In this document: positions 1 to 7,567 of the stretch, piece by piece
Position numbering within the stretch: position 1 is the first letter of the stretch
Layout: each line of letters begins with the position of its first letter
Source: a bacterium
GTDB taxonomy: Bacteria > UBA9089 > CG2-30-40-21 > SBAY01
Length of the DNA stretch: 7,567 bases
NCBI GenBank assembly: GCA_040757115.1
Contig: JBFLYA010000180.1
Location: forward strand, 1 to 7,567
Direction of reading: 5' to 3'
Translations under genes and position numbers: made by a program
The notes under the pieces: generated by a model
Seen by the model: only the letters and a program-made list of their open reading frames with translations
What the model was told of the DNA's origin: nothing
Database searches by the model: none

Positions 1-1
1 C

Positions 2-44
2 CCGAATAGTAAATTTCGTGTCTTCACACTATTTCTACTATCGG
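2..44. repeat. Imperfect stem-loop at the left window edge
   Basis: The arm CCGAATAGTA (2-11) pairs with TACTATCGG (36-44) with one bulged A. The top of the structure can form GTGT-CTTC-ACAC (18-29), and AAAT (11-14) can pair with ATTT (31-34). No clean T-run follows, so it is not a convincing intrinsic terminator. It could be an intergenic repeat element or a 3' structure of a gene lying to the left. Open frames entering from the left edge are too short (stops by about position 100) to call a gene end. Confidence 0.4.
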
Positions 45-128
45 CAAAAGACCTTTCTTTATTTAGCTAATTCGTGCCAAAAACTTCTATCATATTGAGT
101 CCTATCCAAAAACTTGAACATCGAGTTA

Positions 129-191
129 TAGAAATAGGTAGAAATTGATTGTGGAAAACAACAAATTTCCATAAATTTCTATTAGTTTCTA
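129..191. repeat. Imperfect 18-bp inverted repeat (hairpin)
   Basis: The left arm (129-146, TAGAAATAGGTAGAAATT) and right arm (174-191, AATTTCTATTAGTTTCTA) pair at 14 of 18 positions. Two of the four mismatches become G-U wobbles in RNA. The loop is 27 nt. It sits just before the 72-bp repeat and has no U-run, so it is described as a structured intergenic repeat, not a terminator. Confidence 0.45.
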
Positions 192-198
192 TTAATTT

Positions 199-270
199 CA
201 ATTTTTTTATAATATCTCCCTATCTCCTTAATCTCCACATCTCCTTTTGTTACACCACCTGAACGCTTAC
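199..270. repeat. 72-bp dispersed repeat, copy A
   Basis: This segment matches 6122-6193 in the same orientation at 71 of 72 positions. The last 62 bases (209-270) are identical to 6132-6193, and the only difference is T208 versus A6131. It begins with CAA plus a T-run, continues with a CT-rich stretch of TCTCC-type words, and ends with CCTGAACGCTTAC. It has no plausible reading frame. Such near-identity between two non-coding sites about 5.9 kb apart implies a recently spread or gene-converted repeat family. Confidence 0.9.
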
Positions 271-529: not shown

Positions 530-3500
530 GTGAAACGATATATCACAATATTATTAAGTATTTTTATTGTTAGTTCTGCTTCTGCTGGCAGTCTTAAATT
601 TAATGAGGGGACCAGAATGCAATCATACTTGCTTACAGTACCCTCAAATGCTGTCCCTATGGTTATAGATTTTAATCATGACGATTCAAAGGATTTAATT
701 ATAGGCGATGGGAAAGGAACGGTTTGGTTCTATCAAAATTTTGACACGACGAATAATTCCCCTCAATTTCTTAGTGGGAGTGAAATTAAAGTTGATGGAT
801 TTCCAATTAATGTAAATTCTAATGCAGCTCCATTTGTAGTCAATTGGGATAATCAGAATGATTTAGACTTAATTGTTGGAAATGGTAATGGTGAAATAAC
901 TTTGTTTATAAGTTCAAATGGACCTTTTCCAAATAGTTCACCTGCTTTCCAACCAGGGATAGAGATTGCTGAAATTAATGTATCTTCTAATGCCACACCG
1001 TTTGTTGCTGACTGGAATGATGATGGGGAAAAAGATCTTATCATTGGCAATGCATTAGGGAATATATGGGTATATTTGAATGAAGGCACTCAAAATGAAC
1101 CTCGATTTAGCCAGGGGTATCTGGTATTAGCCGGGACGACAACATTATCTGTAGGAAATGATGCCGTCCCGCAAGTTGTTCAATGGGATGGGAAGGGAAA
1201 TAAAGATTTAGTGGTTGGCAATCGTGAAGGTGAGATATATGTCTTTTTAAGTAGCACTAAAACTACTACAGGCACCCCTACTTTTACTACTGGCAATAAG
1301 GTTCAAGCAAATAATAAAGACATAGATGTAGGATTTAATGCCGCCCCGTTTATTACTGATTGGAATAATTCCGGAAATATTGATTTATTAATTGGTGAGT
1401 TAGATGGGTCTTTAAATCTTTATCTCAACTTAAGCGATAAGCCACCTGTATTTTCTATCCCATCTAAGATTGCCGGTGCCCCAACAGACCTTGATGCTGG
1501 TAGCAGAGTTATTCCTCATGTTTTAAACTTTAATAATGATGGGGCAAAAGATATGGTTGTCGGTGATGAAAATGGCAATGTAAAACTTTATCTAAACTCT
1601 GGAAATGATAATGACCCTAAATTTAGTGATGCCTATACATTTCAGGTAGATGCTGGGACACTAACCGGCATAGTAGATTTAGATGTCGGCGATAATGCCA
1701 GCCCGTATGTCTATGATTGGGATGGTAATAGTATTAAAGATTTAATTGTAGGAGATAGTCAGGGTTTCATATATATATTTATTAATTCTAAAACTGATGA
1801 TTCACCACTTTTTAAACCGGGAACTAAAGCCACTACCGGAACTGGAACTAATCAACCATTAAAAGTTACAGGGGATGCTACGCCAATCATAACTGATTGG
1901 AATAATGATGGATTAATGGACTTATTGGTAGGTGACAACTATGGTTATCTAAATCTCTTTTTAAACTCCGGGACCAACCAAAAACCCGTATTCCCTCAAT
2001 CTCCTCAACGAATCAAAGCAGATGGGACGGATATTACTGTTACCCAAAATGCTAAACCTTTTGTCATAGATTTTGATGAGATTAATGGGAAGGATTTAGT
2101 TATTGGGAATAAAGATGGATATTTGAATGTATATTTGAATATTGGTAATGACGCCAATCCAATATTTACCAATGACCAGTCTTATCATTTTCAAATTCAA
2201 GCCAACGCGCAACCCTTGCAAGTCTCAGGTTATGCCGCACCAATAGTTATGAATTGGAACAACGATAATATACTTGATTTGATTGTAGGAGAGGAAGACG
2301 GTTACATTAATCTTTATACCGGTAGTAGAGAAAATTCGGCTCCGGTGGTTTTATGTGATACACCTGTCGGCACGCAAACTAAAGATGTAACCATTAAGTA
2401 TCTCCTACAAGACGATGAAAATAATCCTTGTTCGATTGTGGTGGAATATTCTCCGGATGGTGGGTATACCTGGATAACAGCGTCCGCAGTTGCAAATGCC
2501 GGAGATGGAATGTCAAATTTAAACTCATCTAAAGAAGGAGTAAACCATAGTTTTGTCTGGAATTCTTTTGGAGATTTAGGTGGGGTGATAAAAAAGGTAA
2601 TAATAAAAATTATCCCTTCTGATAGTCAGGTGGAAGGTGAGTCTGGAAAAACAGGTGAATTCTGGGTGGATAATGTGACTATCTACAACTGGCAAAGAAT
2701 AAAACTTAATGGTGCAGACCTGAATATAAATCCTTATTCCAGTCCCATAGTTATAAATTGGGACGAAAATGGAAGTGATGACCTTCTCGTAGGCGGTGAA
2801 AATGGTTATGTCTATTTTTGCAAAAATATAGGGTCAAATCAATCTCCAGTATTTAAGGTCGCAGTTCCATTGCAAATCCAGGGAGGTGGTTTACTCCAGG
2901 TAGATAGTTATGCCAGCCCTTATGTCTGCAATTGGAATAGTAGTGGCAAAAAAGATTTATTAGTTGGAGATAAAGAAGGTTATGTGACATTTTTTGAAAA
3001 TACTGGTGATCATTTAGTATTAGCGAAAGGTAAAAAAATTCAAATTGGCACATCTAACCTTAAACTCTATGGCGGTTACGCTACCCCTGTTGTGACATAC
3101 TGGAATGGAGATAGTTATAAAGACTTATTGGCTGGTGATAGAAATGGTAATGTCTATCTTTATTTGAATAAAAATGTCTCACCTCAAGAAGATACCTCAC
3201 CTTTATTATCCCCAGGGGTTAAGATTCAAGGAAATAGCGATTTAGATGTCGGCAATAATGCCGCACCTTTTATTATTGATTGGGATAAAGATGGTCGTGA
3301 CGATTTGATTATTGGGAATGAGGAAGGGTTTGTCTTTTTCTACAAAAATCTTGGCGCAAATGGAACCCCTTCATTTAAAACAGGGTCTAAGATTAAACTC
3401 GATGGAGCGCCAATCAAAGTTAATGCCAACTCAAAACCTGGCATATTAACACAGAGCCAAGACACCATTGACTTGATAGTCGGAAGCAAAGCCGGGTATG

Positions 3501-4921
3501 TATTTCGATATTCCATTAGCCGACCCGCTGAAAATACCCCACCACAACTAACGATTATCAATCCGAAAGGGACTCAAAGTGTTCAGACTGGCAGTGTGAC
3601 GATAGGCTATATACTTGCAGATGAACAATGGAATAAATGTAATATCAAGGTAGCATATTCAACAGATGGACAATATTGGTATTCGGCAACCGGCACACCT
3701 AAATCTGACTTAGAATCTACACCAGAAGGGACAAATCAGACATTTACCTGGTTTTCTAAAGAGGATATAATTGCGACGAAAACATACATTTACCTTCGAC
3801 TTATTCCAAATGATGGCATTGCCGATGGTCCTACTGCCACGGTCAGTTTTTACTTGAGAAATAGAAATAATTTACCCATTATTACTAATGTTACAACTAA
3901 ACCTGTTGGTCAATTAGGTCAGATAGAGATTTCGTATGACCTTTATGACCAGGATAGTGATTTCTGCCAGGTTTTTGTGGAATATCAAGGTGGCTCCGCA
4001 GGAAATAAATGGGCAACTGCGACGGTCGTTGGAACGACAACTGATATTCTCCCTGGAACAGGAAAAACTTTAACCTGGCTCTCATCGGTTGATGAGAAAA
4101 ATCAGTCAGCTAAAGATTACAAAATAAAGGTTACCCCGTATGACATAGAATATGGCACTTCTGGGGTATCAACACCATTTGAGGTAAATAATACCTTTAT
4201 TTCATCAGCCGTAGTTCCAAAAGGCACGACAACAATTTTAACCTTTTCTCCCACAATCATTGAAATCCTTATCCCTTTTTCCAATACTTATGATGTCCTT
4301 GTCACAGTTGAGAAAGAGCCATCTGGTATCCCCGCTATGAATACCTTAGCCGCTTTAGATAATACGGTCAGAAAGATTACCACAGCCTGGTTACCTCTAA
4401 ATGTTAAATCTCCTGCCCCGCAAACAAAGGCTAAACTTACGATTGACTATACTGATTTAGGTTCTTATGAAACTGAGAATTTATTGCGAATATTTGAGTT
4501 ACGCGAGAATAAATGGGTAGTGGTCGAAGGAAAACAATCCGTAGATGTGGTTAATAATCGTGTTACCGCAGAGGTAGAACATTTCTCGGTATTCAGGATT
4601 GGACTATATGCTAATTCCCTGGCTAATTTTAGCATCTCACCAAATCCATTCAAGGATAATGATGGGATAAAAGAAAATGGTGAACTTGGTGCTGGTGGCG
4701 ATTATGAAGTTATAACATTCGTGGGTGTGAATAAGGTTGAAATTTATACCATTGCGGGTGAATTGGTTCGTGAATCCAAAAACTCGGAAATAGATTATAG
4801 CGGTTGGCGATGGAACTTACGAAATGATGCCGGTAGATTAGTCAGTAGTGGCATTTATATTTATGTCGCTTATGATAGTAGCGGTGCCTGTGTAGTTGGA
4901 AAATTAGGAGTAATAAGATAA
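530..4921 (+). CDS. Secreted VCBS/FG-GAP repeat protein with Ig-like modules and T9SS-like C-terminal domain
   Basis: This is a 1463-residue exported protein starting at GTG. Residues 1-19 form a signal peptide (KR, hydrophobic core, SASA before G20). Fifteen repeats of about 58 residues follow, with the pattern N-A-x-P-F-V-x-D-W-N-N-D-G-x-x-D-L-I-V-G, then G-x-(hydrophobic)-x-L-Y-L-N and a P-x-F. They begin near residues 40, 98, 154, 211, 270, 326, 389, 449, 507 and 568, then 736, 794, 850, 910 and 967. The D-x-N-x-D-G-x-x-D loops look calcium-binding, as in VCBS/FG-GAP propeller blades. Related Ig-like modules lie at about 603-722, 1003-1112 and 1115-1222. Each has an aligned Cys (C634, C1037, C1146) and a W in a TW-like motif. 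A beta-rich domain (1227-1365) leads to a C-terminal domain (1366-1463) with SPNPF, a W1428-to-Y1445 segment of the W-x-L-x-x-x-x-G-x-x-x-x-S-G-I-Y type, and a KLGVIR end, like T9SS type A or FlgD-Ig sorting domains. A surface adhesin or scaffold role is inferred. No catalytic domain is seen. Confidence 0.88.
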   Translation: MKRYITILLSIFIVSSASAGSLKFNEGTRMQSYLLTVPSNAVPMVIDFNHDDSKDLIIGDGKGTVWFYQNFDTTNNSPQFLSGSEIKVDGFPINVNSNAAPFVVNWDNQNDLDLIVGNGNGEITLFISSNGPFPNSSPAFQPGIEIAEINVSSNATPFVADWNDDGEKDLIIGNALGNIWVYLNEGTQNEPRFSQGYLVLAGTTTLSVGNDAVPQVVQWDGKGNKDLVVGNREGEIYVFLSSTKTTTGTPTFTTGNKVQANNKDIDVGFNAAPFITDWNNSGNIDLLIGELDGSLNLYLNLSDKPPVFSIPSKIAGAPTDLDAGSRVIPHVLNFNNDGAKDMVVGDENGNVKLYLNSGNDNDPKFSDAYTFQVDAGTLTGIVDLDVGDNASPYVYDWDGNSIKDLIVGDSQGFIYIFINSKTDDSPLFKPGTKATTGTGTNQPLKVTGDATPIITDWNNDGLMDLLVGDNYGYLNLFLNSGTNQKPVFPQSPQRIKADGTDITVTQNAKPFVIDFDEINGKDLVIGNKDGYLNVYLNIGNDANPIFTNDQSYHFQIQANAQPLQVSGYAAPIVMNWNNDNILDLIVGEEDGYINLYTGSRENSAPVVLCDTPVGTQTKDVTIKYLLQDDENNPCSIVVEYSPDGGYTWITASAVANAGDGMSNLNSSKEGVNHSFVWNSFGDLGGVIKKVIIKIIPSDSQVEGESGKTGEFWVDNVTIYNWQRIKLNGADLNINPYSSPIVINWDENGSDDLLVGGENGYVYFCKNIGSNQSPVFKVAVPLQIQGGGLLQVDSYASPYVCNWNSSGKKDLLVGDKEGYVTFFENTGDHLVLAKGKKIQIGTSNLKLYGGYATPVVTYWNGDSYKDLLAGDRNGNVYLYLNKNVSPQEDTSPLLSPGVKIQGNSDLDVGNNAAPFIIDWDKDGRDDLIIGNEEGFVFFYKNLGANGTPSFKTGSKIKLDGAPIKVNANSKPGILTQSQDTIDLIVGSKAGYVFRYSISRPAENTPPQLTIINPKGTQSVQTGSVTIGYILADEQWNKCNIKVAYSTDGQYWYSATGTPKSDLESTPEGTNQTFTWFSKEDIIATKTYIYLRLIPNDGIADGPTATVSFYLRNRNNLPIITNVTTKPVGQLGQIEISYDLYDQDSDFCQVFVEYQGGSAGNKWATATVVGTTTDILPGTGKTLTWLSSVDEKNQSAKDYKIKVTPYDIEYGTSGVSTPFEVNNTFISSAVVPKGTTTILTFSPTIIEILIPFSNTYDVLVTVEKEPSGIPAMNTLAALDNTVRKITTAWLPLNVKSPAPQTKAKLTIDYTDLGSYETENLLRIFELRENKWVVVEGKQSVDVVNNRVTAEVEHFSVFRIGLYANSLANFSISPNPFKDNDGIKENGELGAGGDYEVITFVGVNKVEIYTIAGELVRESKNSEIDYSGWRWNLRNDAGRLVSSGIYIYVAYDSSGACVVGKLGVIR
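4906..4910 (+). promoter_or_regulatory. Ribosome-binding site inside the end of the upstream gene
   Basis: AGGAG lies within the last codons of the large secreted-protein gene, 12 nt before the ATG at 4923. That spacing is longer than the usual optimum. With the stop codon ending at 4921, it suggests translational coupling of the two genes. Confidence 0.55.
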
Positions 4922-4922
4922 A

Positions 4923-5834
4923 ATGCAAAAATTAATAAATCTCATATGTTTTATAAATCTTATAATTACTTTACCTGTTTTTGCCCAGGATAAGTATACC
5001 GGGGAAACCTGTGCTAATTTTTTAAAGTTAGATGTTGGGGCAAGACAGGGGGCTTTAGCCGGTGCCTTTGCTGGCGTAGGAGATGATGTCAATACCATCA
5101 ATTATAACCCTGCGGGCTTAGTCTATGCCGGAACTATTTCTTTGACTGCCATGCATAATCAATGGTTTCAATCTATAAAATATGAATATCTTGGTTATGC
5201 TCAGCAGATGTGGTGGGGTGGAGTCCTTGGTGGAAGTTTAGCCTATCTCCATATGGGTGATATAAAAGGTAGTCTGGTTGGGAATAAACCAGCAGAGGAT
5301 TGGACTGCCCGGGATTCTTGCTTGACCATTTCTTATGCCCATCCCTGGAATGATAGACTTTCTGTTGGGGCAAATCTTAAGATTATCTATGAAAAAATAG
5401 AACAAGAGGATGCCTCTACAATAGCATTTGATTTTGGCACCTTTTATAAAACAGTGATTGATAACCTCTCCTTTGGTTTATGTCTTCAAAATGTAGGTTC
5501 CGGGCTAAAATTTATTCAAGAAAAATCTGATTTGCCCATAAACATAAAAGCCGGGATGTCGGTAAAATTACTTGATGAACGGTTGCTCATTGCCCTTGAT
5601 GCAAATAAACCTGTGGATAATGAGATGAATTTACGGCTTGGGGTTGAATATCAATTGATAGATGCCCTGGCATTACGCGCCGGGTATCGAACAGACCCGG
5701 ATATTGGTTCTGGATTCTCTGGTGGTGTGGGATTAAAAGTAATGAATTATGCGATAGATTATGGTTTTGCCCCCTATGGTAACTTAGGCGATACCCACCG
5801 CATTTCTCTGCGTATGGACTTCTTATCTGAGTAA
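4923..5834 (+). CDS. PorV/PorQ family outer-membrane beta-barrel protein (UPF0164-like)
   Basis: This is a 303-residue protein. Residues 1-21 are a signal peptide ending in VFA before Q22. Residues 33-66 carry the family signature FLKLDVGARQGALAGAFAGV followed by the YNPAGL segment (61-66), typical of PorV/PorQ proteins and of FadL-like barrels. The rest alternates amphipathic strands and turns, and it ends in HRISLRMDFLSE, where the aromatic near the C-terminus fits a BAM recognition signal. The length is normal for PorQ-like members and shorter than Bacteroidetes PorV. Only one base separates it from the stop of the large repeat protein, so an operon is nearly certain. Known role of the family: PorV shuttles T9SS cargo by binding its C-terminal domain at the outer membrane. 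A matching role with the adjacent cargo-like protein is inference. A general outer-membrane transporter is the alternative. Confidence 0.87.
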   Translation: MQKLINLICFINLIITLPVFAQDKYTGETCANFLKLDVGARQGALAGAFAGVGDDVNTINYNPAGLVYAGTISLTAMHNQWFQSIKYEYLGYAQQMWWGGVLGGSLAYLHMGDIKGSLVGNKPAEDWTARDSCLTISYAHPWNDRLSVGANLKIIYEKIEQEDASTIAFDFGTFYKTVIDNLSFGLCLQNVGSGLKFIQEKSDLPINIKAGMSVKLLDERLLIALDANKPVDNEMNLRLGVEYQLIDALALRAGYRTDPDIGSGFSGGVGLKVMNYAIDYGFAPYGNLGDTHRISLRMDFLSE

Positions 5835-5841
5835 GGCATCT

Positions 5842-5880
5842 GGTAACTGTTCAGCCACTGATTAACACGGATAAAACGGA
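5842..5880 (+). repeat. Intergenic repeat word after the operon
   Basis: GGTAACTGTTCAGCC (5842-5856) runs into a GCCACTGATTAACACGGAT word (5854-5872). The first part is a variant of the 14-mer at 5899-5912. The second resembles an intergenic word I recall from other environmental genomes (not verified). No terminator hairpin is visible after the PorV-like gene, so transcription may continue into this repeat region. Confidence 0.45.
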
Positions 5881-5911
5881 GAAGAAAGTAAAAAGTAAGG
5901 TAACTATTCAC

Positions 5912-5938
5912 CACGAAGGGCACGGAGAGCACGAAGTG
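5912..5938 (+). repeat. Degenerate 9-bp tandem repeat, three units
   Basis: The units are CACGAAGGG (5912-5920), CACGGAGAG (5921-5929) and CACGAAGTG (5930-5938). They are in frame with the following GxxExxY relic, where they would read His-Glu-Gly, His-Gly-Glu, His-Glu-Val. The last three bases serve as its possible GTG start. CACGAAGG-type words next to GxxExxY genes are something I recall from annotated genomes, not something tested here. Confidence 0.55.
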
Positions 5939-6085
5939 AAATTTGATGAATTATCGAATAGAGTCATTGGATGCGCTATAGCGGTGCATCGAACTCTTGG
6001 GCCAGGTTTGCTTGACACCGTGAAGAGTGATAATTCACAATTCACAATTGACAATTCACCATTTACCATTATTAAGGAAATTTAG
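5936..6085 (+). pseudogene. Truncated GxxExxY family protein remnant
   Basis: From the GTG at 5936 the frame reads VKFDELSNRVIG, then CAIAVHR and TLGPGLL (to about 6013). This is the conserved N-terminal start of the GxxExxY family (PDDEXK_3-like; usual length roughly 120-130 residues). The hallmark G-x-x-E-x-x-Y is destroyed exactly where similarity stops: the sequence is G-L-L-D-T-V-K. The following codons are translated 7-mer repeat (SQFTIDNSPFTI) up to TAG at 6083. The remaining roughly 100 family residues are not found downstream in any frame I checked. The frame is also open upstream back to 5831 but lacks an ATG. It is judged a relic, cut by or joined to a repeat array. The function of GxxExxY proteins is itself unclear. 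Confidence 0.75.
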
Positions 6086-6114
6086 GGAAGAAATTGTGAA
6101 TGGTGAATGGTGAA
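6034..6114. repeat. Inverted arrays of a TTCACMA heptamer
   Basis: Five consecutive 7-mers occupy 6034-6068: TTCACAA, TTCACAA, TTGACAA, TTCACCA, TTTACCA. After a 25-nt centre, three inverted units follow at 6094-6114: TTGTGAA, TGGTGAA, TGGTGAA. The outer 21-nt arms (6034-6054 with 6094-6114) match at 18 of 21 positions, so the region can fold into a long hairpin. It lies inside the 14-bp inverted repeats and directly breaks the GxxExxY reading frame. Confidence 0.7.
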
Positions 6115-6121
6115 TAGTTAC

Positions 6122-6193
6122 CAATTTTTTAATAATATCTCCCTATCTCCTTAATCTCCACATCTCCTTTTGTTACACCACCTGAACGCTTAC
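6122..6193. repeat. 72-bp dispersed repeat, copy B
   Basis: This is the second copy of the repeat at 199-270, in the same orientation, with one mismatch. The flanks of the two copies differ completely on both sides, so 72 bp is the true unit length in this pair. Unlike copy A, no promoter follows within 20 bp. The rest of the stretch to 6276 is AG-rich sequence in which I see no gene. Confidence 0.9.
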
Positions 6194-6276
6194 AAAGTAA
6201 GAAGTAAAAAGCAGGAGAAATCCTCATACCCCTCCAGGGCACAAATGACGATGAAAATTGAGCATAGAGATTGGAG

Positions 6277-6330
6277 ATTAGAGATTAGCAAGAGTGCAGG
6301 TTCTAATTCACTAATTCTCTAATCTCTAAT
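6277..6330. repeat. 12-bp perfect inverted repeat (hairpin)
   Basis: ATTAGAGATTAG (6277-6288) is the exact reverse complement of CTAATCTCTAAT (6319-6330), with a 30-nt loop. Both arms are built of GAGATTA/TAATCTC words, which continue as direct repeats (GAGATTAGAGATTAG at 6274-6288). No clean T-run follows, so termination is unlikely. It is probably another intergenic repeat word pair. Confidence 0.55.
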
Positions 6331-6396
6331 TAACTATTTTCAGGAAAATCCCCCATTTTATTTTACTGACGCATTACCTCAACCTTTAAATTTTTG

Positions 6397-7359: not shown

Positions 7360-7458
7360 GAAGATTAAGAGTGAAATTTTGGTGGTGTTTTAATCTAGCA
7401 TAAAGGTTAAAATAGTGTATAGGGTTCTGCAAAATAGGATTTCAGGAAGACAACAAAT

Positions 7459-7499
7459 AAATATTAAATATCAAATATTAAATATCAAATATAAATATC
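7459..7499. repeat. 14-bp tandem repeat, three units
   Basis: AAATATTAAATATC occurs at 7459-7472 and 7473-7486. A 13-nt version lacking one T (AAATATAAATATC) occurs at 7487-7499. It runs directly into AAAATGCAAAATTACAAATC (7500-7519), another low-complexity word. It could act as an AT-rich upstream region for the possible gene at 7503, or be a slippage-prone simple repeat. Confidence 0.7.
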
Positions 7500-7502
7500 A
7501 AA

Positions 7503-7567
7503 ATGCAAAATTACAAATCAAATTTCAAAGAGGAAGTAGCAGGGTTTCTCAAAGAGTTGGAGGAATT
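7503..7567 (+). CDS. Possible N-terminus of a gene cut by the window edge
   Basis: From the ATG at 7503, 21 codons stay open to the edge. After MQNYKS the translation is NFKEEVAGFLKELEE. The residue pattern is that of an amphipathic charged helix, which looks coding. No family can be named from 21 residues. No SD precedes the ATG, and the first codons overlap a repetitive AT-rich word, so the true start may lie elsewhere or the ATG may be chance. On the opposite strand an alternative C-terminal tail of 18 codons ending in KFDL, with a stop at 7511-7513, is also open. The plus-strand reading is only mildly preferred. Confidence 0.35.
   Translation, partial: MQNYKSNFKEEVAGFLKELEE

What the first reader, a model, noticed from the sequence alone, without database searches (positions are those of the whole stretch)
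5842..6193. A shared GTAA..(G/A)TTCA core at the boundaries of different repeat words
GGTAACTGTTCAGCC (5842-5856), GGTAACTATTCACC (5899-5912 and inverted 6109-6122) and GTAAGCGTTCAGG (inverted 6181-6193 and 258-270) share the core GTAA(C/G)(T/C)(G/A)TTCA. In each case a different repeat word begins at or next to the core. This looks like modular intergenic DNA joined at a common junction, such as an integration or recombination site.
Basis: partly seen in the sequence, partly recalled or inferred. Interest (0 to 1): 0.65.

Follow-up and report, generated by a model that had tools for sequence, protein, structure and literature searches.

The report
Ends of hundreds of jumping mini-elements
The shared GTAA..TTCA motif is the tip of roughly 600 tiny jumping DNA elements that fill the gaps between genes in this uncultured bacterium, carry many unrelated contents (some with a small nuclease-like or four-helix gene) behind the same ends, and were most likely moved by an IS66-type transposase.

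Summary
GTAASYRTTCA occurs 5 times in 7.6 kb (0.03 expected) and 1328 times in the 4.3-Mb genome (24 for the reversed pattern). It is the terminal inverted repeat of short mobile elements, mostly 150-550 bp. In 1.5 Mb, 46 of 127 facing pairs are flanked by exact 8-bp direct repeats (shuffled mean 0.4), with almost none at 7 or 9 bp. A scan that assumed no motif recovered the same ends. GTAA ends plus 8-bp duplications mark the IS66 family; the closest relative is ISDge4 (ISBst12 group). Decayed IS66 transposase genes in this genome and its phylum lie between the same cores. At least 19 different 'words' follow the one core, so modules do switch there, but it is a transposon end, not an integration site. 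The window element is 5900-6193 (duplication AAAGTAAG), a composite of two families. Some elements carry intact GxxExxY (PD-(D/E)XK) or four-helix-bundle genes, also found in other phyla between locus-specific inverted words; I found no published account of that. Who supplied the transposase, and what the passengers do, are inferred or open.

The parts
5892..5899 (.). left copy of the 8-bp target duplication AAAGTAAG
   Evidence: identical to 6194-6201
6194..6201 (.). right copy of the 8-bp target duplication AAAGTAAG
5900..6193 (.). composite mobile element, 294 bp, IS66-type ends
   Evidence: inverted cores at both tips plus exact 8-bp duplication
5900..5910 (+). left terminal repeat GTAACTATTCA
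6183..6193 (-). right terminal repeat GTAAGCGTTCA (inverted)
5900..6121 (.). inner GTAACTATTCA-ended element, 222 bp
   Evidence: 99.5% identical over 222 bp to L097:15944-15723; 215-bp-type relatives with own 8-bp duplications at L034, L104, L110
6111..6121 (-). inner right terminal repeat GTAACTATTCA (inverted)
5911..5936 (+). periodic repeat word CCACGAAGGGCACGGAGAGCACGAAG (about 9-bp period)
   Evidence: sequence; word family of 42 ends in 1.5 Mb
5948..6022 (+). relic of a GxxExxY gene (first ~25 positions of the family)
   Evidence: TIGR04256 E=1.9e-4, PF13366 E=7e-4, both below curated cut-off
6122..6193 (-). right end of the 237-bp GTAACCG/GTAAGCG element family (its positions ~166-237)
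   Evidence: 69-72 bp at 97-100% to about 20 full copies
5843..5899 (+). left end (GTAACTGTTCA, 5843-5853) and word of another element; no right end detected in the window
126..270 (-). copy of the 237-bp family truncated at its left (its positions 92-237); right terminal repeat at 260-270
   Evidence: 98-100% to full copies

Best explanation
The core is the outer terminal inverted repeat of a superfamily of non-autonomous (MITE-like) transposable elements with IS66-type ends, probably of the ISBst12 group. A DDE transposase acting in trans cuts at GTAA and joins the element to AT-rich targets with an 8-bp stagger, leaving 8-bp duplications. It seems to need little more than the 11-bp tip, so many unrelated interiors travel behind the same ends: periodic repeat words, relic or intact GxxExxY genes, four-helix-bundle genes. 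Elements insert into one another, and two ends of different elements can then move together. The window composite fits this: a GTAACTATTCA element inserted into a 237-bp-family element, and the inner left end plus the outer right end then moved to AAAGTAAG. Shown: inverted ends, 8-bp duplications, uninterrupted target copies, nesting, mixed-end composites, the same ends around IS66 transposase genes. Inferred: that IS66 TnpC is the mover, that 11 bp suffices, and the order of events in the composite.
For: 1328 cores vs 24 control; 46/127 adjacent facing pairs with exact 8-bp duplications, shuffled mean 0.41, max 4, lengths 7 and 9 give 2 and 0; motif-free scan recovers GTAA ends only at 8 bp; same in G001 (7/14) and G008 (5/16); uninterrupted copies of the target with one 8-bp unit; IS66 transposase genes between the same cores in L114, L175, L176 and near-identical in L174; published IS66 and ISBst12 ends and 8-bp repeats (PMC12888890, PMC11946415, PMC12898284); composites L049:11027-11572 and the window.
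Against: Terminal identity between families is only 11 bp, whereas IS66 repeats are usually 20-30 bp. None of the transposase-bearing copies examined shows the 8-bp duplication. G000 holds only five, mostly fragmentary, IS66 matches, and element-rich G008 has none detected. About 60% of facing pairs no longer have matching flanks.
Confidence: 0.9

Rival explanations
1. The core is a site-specific recombination or integration site (integron attC/attI type, or an attachment site) at which cassettes are joined.
For: Different modules share the junction, and the genome does encode integron-type integrases above the curated cut-off.
Against: Cores come as facing pairs with variable 8-bp target duplications, are scattered over 74 of 78 sampled stretches, and none lies near the two best integrase genes (nearest about 5 kb away).
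Confidence: 0.02
2. The elements are transposons with these ends, but the mover is not IS66 TnpC: another transposase, or the passenger GxxExxY (PD-(D/E)XK fold) protein, does the work.
For: IS66 genes are few and mostly broken; GxxExxY is a nuclease-fold family carried inside some elements.
Against: Most elements with duplications carry no intact gene; GxxExxY units in other phyla lack the core; ISDge4, an experimentally mobile ISBst12 element, has nearly the same ends and 8-bp repeats (PMC12898284).
Confidence: 0.07
3. They are non-mobile structural or regulatory repeats (REP-like hairpins, terminators, RNA elements) that spread by slow duplication.
For: They sit between genes and the words are inverted, so they could fold in RNA.
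Against: Exact 8-bp target duplications and uninterrupted target copies show insertion; no Rfam family matches in the window.
Confidence: 0.01

Closest known systems
IS66 family, ISBst12 group (e.g. ISDge4 of Deinococcus geothermalis, PMC12898284)
   Same: GTAAC..TCA-type ends (ISDge4: GTAACTGCTCAGCA at one end), 8-bp target duplication, DDE transposase of PF03050 between such ends in this phylum
   Different: The window elements carry no transposase, share only 11 bp of terminal repeat, and are 5-10 times shorter
Bacterial MITEs
   Same: Short, high copy, intergenic, inverted ends, target duplications, no transposase
   Different: A MITE family normally has one conserved sequence; here at least 19 word families sit behind one 11-bp end, and some elements carry whole small genes
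tIS66 elements (IS66 with passenger genes, e.g. ISPa75 with fosZ, PMC12888890)
   Same: IS66-type ends with a passenger gene
   Different: tIS66 keep the transposase genes; here the passenger stands alone in about 450-700 bp
REP/REPIN sequences and integron attC sites
   Same: Many short inverted intergenic repeats, or a common junction between modules
   Different: From general knowledge, neither leaves 8-bp target duplications; no core near the two best integrase genes

Membership tests
IS66 family ends | terminal repeat starts with GTAA | tested here: met
   motif-free scan: 45 of 64 elements with exact 8-bp duplication start GTAA
IS66 family ends | 8-bp target duplication | tested here: met
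   46/127 pairs exact at 8 bp, 2 at 7 bp and 0 at 9 bp; window AAAGTAAG
IS66 family ends | terminal repeats of about 20-30 bp | tested here: not met
   only 11 bp shared across families; within a family the inverted words can lengthen the match
IS66 family (autonomous member) | transposase gene (PF03050) inside the element | tested here: not met
   window element has only a GxxExxY relic; not claimed as an autonomous IS66
IS66-related non-autonomous elements | an IS66 transposase with the same ends in the same genome or phylum | tested here: met
   L114 in G000; L175 (G004) and L176 (G014) in relatives
IS66-related non-autonomous elements | duplications around those transposase-bearing copies | tested here: not met
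   no matching 8 bp at L114, L174, L175, L176, L180
IS66-related non-autonomous elements | mobilised by TnpC in trans | not testable with these tools
   needs an experiment
MITE | short, multi-copy, no transposase, inverted ends, target duplications | tested here: met
   most 118-550 bp, 1328 ends genome-wide
MITE | copies of one family alike along the whole length | tested here: inconclusive
   true within word families such as the 237-bp family, not across families sharing the end
Integron cassette / attC | sites arrayed beside an integrase gene | tested here: not met
   integrases exist but no core lies near the two best ones
GxxExxY protein (window relic) | score above the curated cut-off of TIGR04256 | tested here: not met
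   21.8 bits vs 35, first 25 positions only, so called a relic; intact copies elsewhere pass, e.g. L117 with 162 bits

The most novel reading that the evidence does not exclude
The GxxExxY (PD-(D/E)XK fold) and four-helix-bundle genes, each flanked by its own inverted periodic word, belong to a separate, widespread and undescribed class of mobile units. In this phylum such units have been fused to IS66-type ends, and the matching of words between the two ends of each locus (less so between loci) reflects a copying process that regenerates the ends.
Probability: 0.2. Interest if true: 0.8.

Novelty: new variant of a known kind. Interest (0 to 1): 0.5.

Why it matters
It explains much of the intergenic repeat DNA of this genome, and probably of its uncultured phylum, with one rule: shared 11-bp transposon tips with very different contents. 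One locus shows how nested elements can recombine into new ones by using one end of each. It also puts two common small-gene families of unclear role, GxxExxY and four-helix bundle, on mobile DNA with defined borders, which makes their role testable.

Tried and rejected
Chance or composition: rejected. Integron or attachment site: rejected. Rfam RNA and tRNA: nothing in the window. Orthologous empty site for the window element: inconclusive, because in the family-level relatives the DNA after the porV-like gene is different (one holds other cores, L116/L233; the other contig ends early, L232); uninterrupted copies of repeats that serve as targets were used instead. Duplications in the one out-of-phylum genome with facing pairs (G026): none of 3. 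A published description of the cores or of GxxExxY mobility: none found in the library; hits to the core strings were in unrelated papers. A scan for other ends with 7-bp duplications gave TAGC, which was a tandem-repeat artefact at L092.

Full report
What is there. The window is contig C180 of a draft genome of 4.32 Mb in 462 contigs. In that genome the core occurs 1328 times, against 24 for the reversed pattern. It is enriched in most genomes of the same phylum that were looked at, strongly in some (1329 hits in the same-genus G001, 879 in G008), and shows no clear excess in the 22 genomes from other phyla, apart from a few facing pairs in G026. The public record closest by protein is a MAG contig labelled Nitrospira sp. 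Bin_21_1 (L116, 76% protein identity); its sequence after the porV-like gene equals that of relative G003. I do not know the organism's name.

It is a transposon end. In 1.51 Mb taken from the genome there are 419 cores. They come as facing pairs: 119 of 131 neighbouring plus/minus pairs are less than 500 bp apart. Of the 127 with flanks and less than 3 kb apart, 46 have identical 8 bp on both outer sides; shuffled flanks give 0.41 on average and 4 at most. Duplication lengths of 7 and 9 give 2 and 0. To avoid assuming the motif, I scanned for any inverted 11-bp ends with an exact duplication of 5 to 10 bp. At 8 bp there were 64 such elements, 45 of them starting GTAA, with GTAACCGTTCA, GTAACTATTCA, GTAAGCGTTCA and GTAACTGTTCA as the commonest ends. 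Two further genomes confirm it: the same genus (7 of 14 pairs) and another family of the phylum (5 of 16). Some targets are themselves repeats, and uninterrupted copies show a single 8 bp where the element has two, for example CGTGGTTA and AAATACTT. None of 50 reconstructed empty sites lies inside a long reading frame, against 288 of 396 random sites.

Which family. GTAA ends with 8-bp duplications are the signature of IS66. Published IS66 repeats read GTAAGCGTCCGGCGAACTCACCTT and GTAACCGTCCGGGCA (PMC12888890). Transposing IS66 copies left 8-bp repeats (PMC11946415). The ISBst12-group element ISDge4 has GTAACTGCTCAGCA at one end, a single 449-residue transposase gene and an 8-bp repeat (PMC12898284). 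In this genome a decayed IS66 transposase gene lies between GTAACCGTTCAGG and its inverse (C277, L114:3061-4623). In relatives, L175 (476-residue stop-free frame) and L176 lie between matching cores, and L174 between cores with one mismatch. Against: none of these transposase-bearing copies shows the duplication itself, and element-rich G008 has no detected transposase. So the parent is well supported but not proven.

Modules do switch at the core. Clustering 416 ends by the 30 bases after the core gives 19 families of three or more ends, holding 357 ends. Between families, identity is at background from position 14 inward and directly outside the core; within families it is about 0.9 for most of the first 30 bases. 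The words are periodic at roughly 8-10 bp, such as CACGAAGAG, GCAGAGACAC and GGAGATNNG.

The window element. 5900-6193 has AAAGTAAG on both sides. Its first 222 bp are a complete GTAACTATTCA element (99.5% to L097) with the first ~25 positions of a GxxExxY gene. Its last 72 bp are the right end of the 237-bp GTAACCG/GTAAGCG family. The inner element has no duplication of its own at 6122, where CAATTTTT of the 237-bp family begins. The simplest reading is insertion of one element into another, followed by movement of the inner left end with the outer right end. L049:11027-11572 (TAAATATT on both sides) is a second composite of the same kind. Simple nesting is seen too (L084:4223-4976 around 4646-4923). 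The core at 5843 begins another element without a detected right end, and 126-270 is a truncated copy of the 237-bp family. Nearly all intergenic DNA of the window is repeat sequence (6-288, 5840-6377, 7372-7567).

Passengers. The genome has 68 matches to GxxExxY (TIGR04256, PF13366 PDDEXK_3) and 27 to four-helix-bundle protein (TIGR02436, PF05635). Of the 19 best GxxExxY loci, nine lie within a core pair (one mismatch allowed), three of them with an exact duplication (L128, L131, L133). At least five four-helix loci (L150, L151, L158, L161, L168) do too, four with an exact duplication. The intact L117 protein keeps the GLLESAY motif and a D..ELK motif. Other copies, in this genome, in relatives and in other phyla, lack the core, and many are flanked by an inverted word of their own. 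The word pairs within a locus score higher than pairs across loci: medians 18.5, 18 and 16 against cross means of 10.4, 11.3 and 8.2. Core-bearing loci contribute to the first two figures, and in the own-phylum GxxExxY set only 11 of 28 exceed the 95th percentile of the cross pairs. So word-plus-gene units appear to exist independently of the IS66 ends. I found no paper on this, but the library holds only open-access work.

Verdict. It is the tip of IS66-type mini-elements rather than a recombination site. MITEs and IS66 are known; what is unusual is the number of unrelated contents behind one 11-bp end, the mixed-end composites and the stand-alone passenger genes.

Noticed in passing
window 7372-7567: End of a second short mobile family, GGTGGTGTCT-type tips with 8-bp duplications; six copies with duplications in 1.5 Mb.
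   Followed up: partly
window 6212-6377: Another repeat ending in GTAATGCGTCA (inverted, 6367-6377), a third GTAA-type end also seen with 8-bp duplications at L083 and L108.
   Followed up: partly
window 1-125: A different repeat that interrupts the 237-bp element copy; it recurs at the ends of contigs C57, C55 and C42, so it probably breaks the assembly.
   Followed up: no
L067:1426-1787, L087:17830-17999, L099:10996-11165, L107:3383-3686: Elements with CGACCTGTG tips and 8-bp duplications; two contain the same CGCAGAGACGCAAAG-type word as GTAA elements, so words also pair with other ends.
   Followed up: partly
G000:C39:13643-14572 (L091, L238), C30:7354-7995 (L239), C63: Integron-type integrase genes, two matches above the curated cut-off, with GTTAGAC/GTCTAAC boxes nearby at C39; unrelated to the cores.
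   Followed up: partly
window 530-4921 and 4923-5834: A 1463-residue FG-GAP-repeat protein with a weak T9SS-type tail match, next to a PorV/PorQ-family gene; more than 15 relatives of the latter per related genome.
   Followed up: no
L271-L273 (G026, another phylum): Three facing core pairs about 120 bp long in a genome outside the phylum, without 8-bp duplications.
   Followed up: partly
L120, L123, L127, L147, L152, L155, L190, L196, L199: GxxExxY or four-helix-bundle genes without the core, each between inverted copies of its own repeat word; how the two words of a locus stay matched is unexplained.
   Followed up: partly
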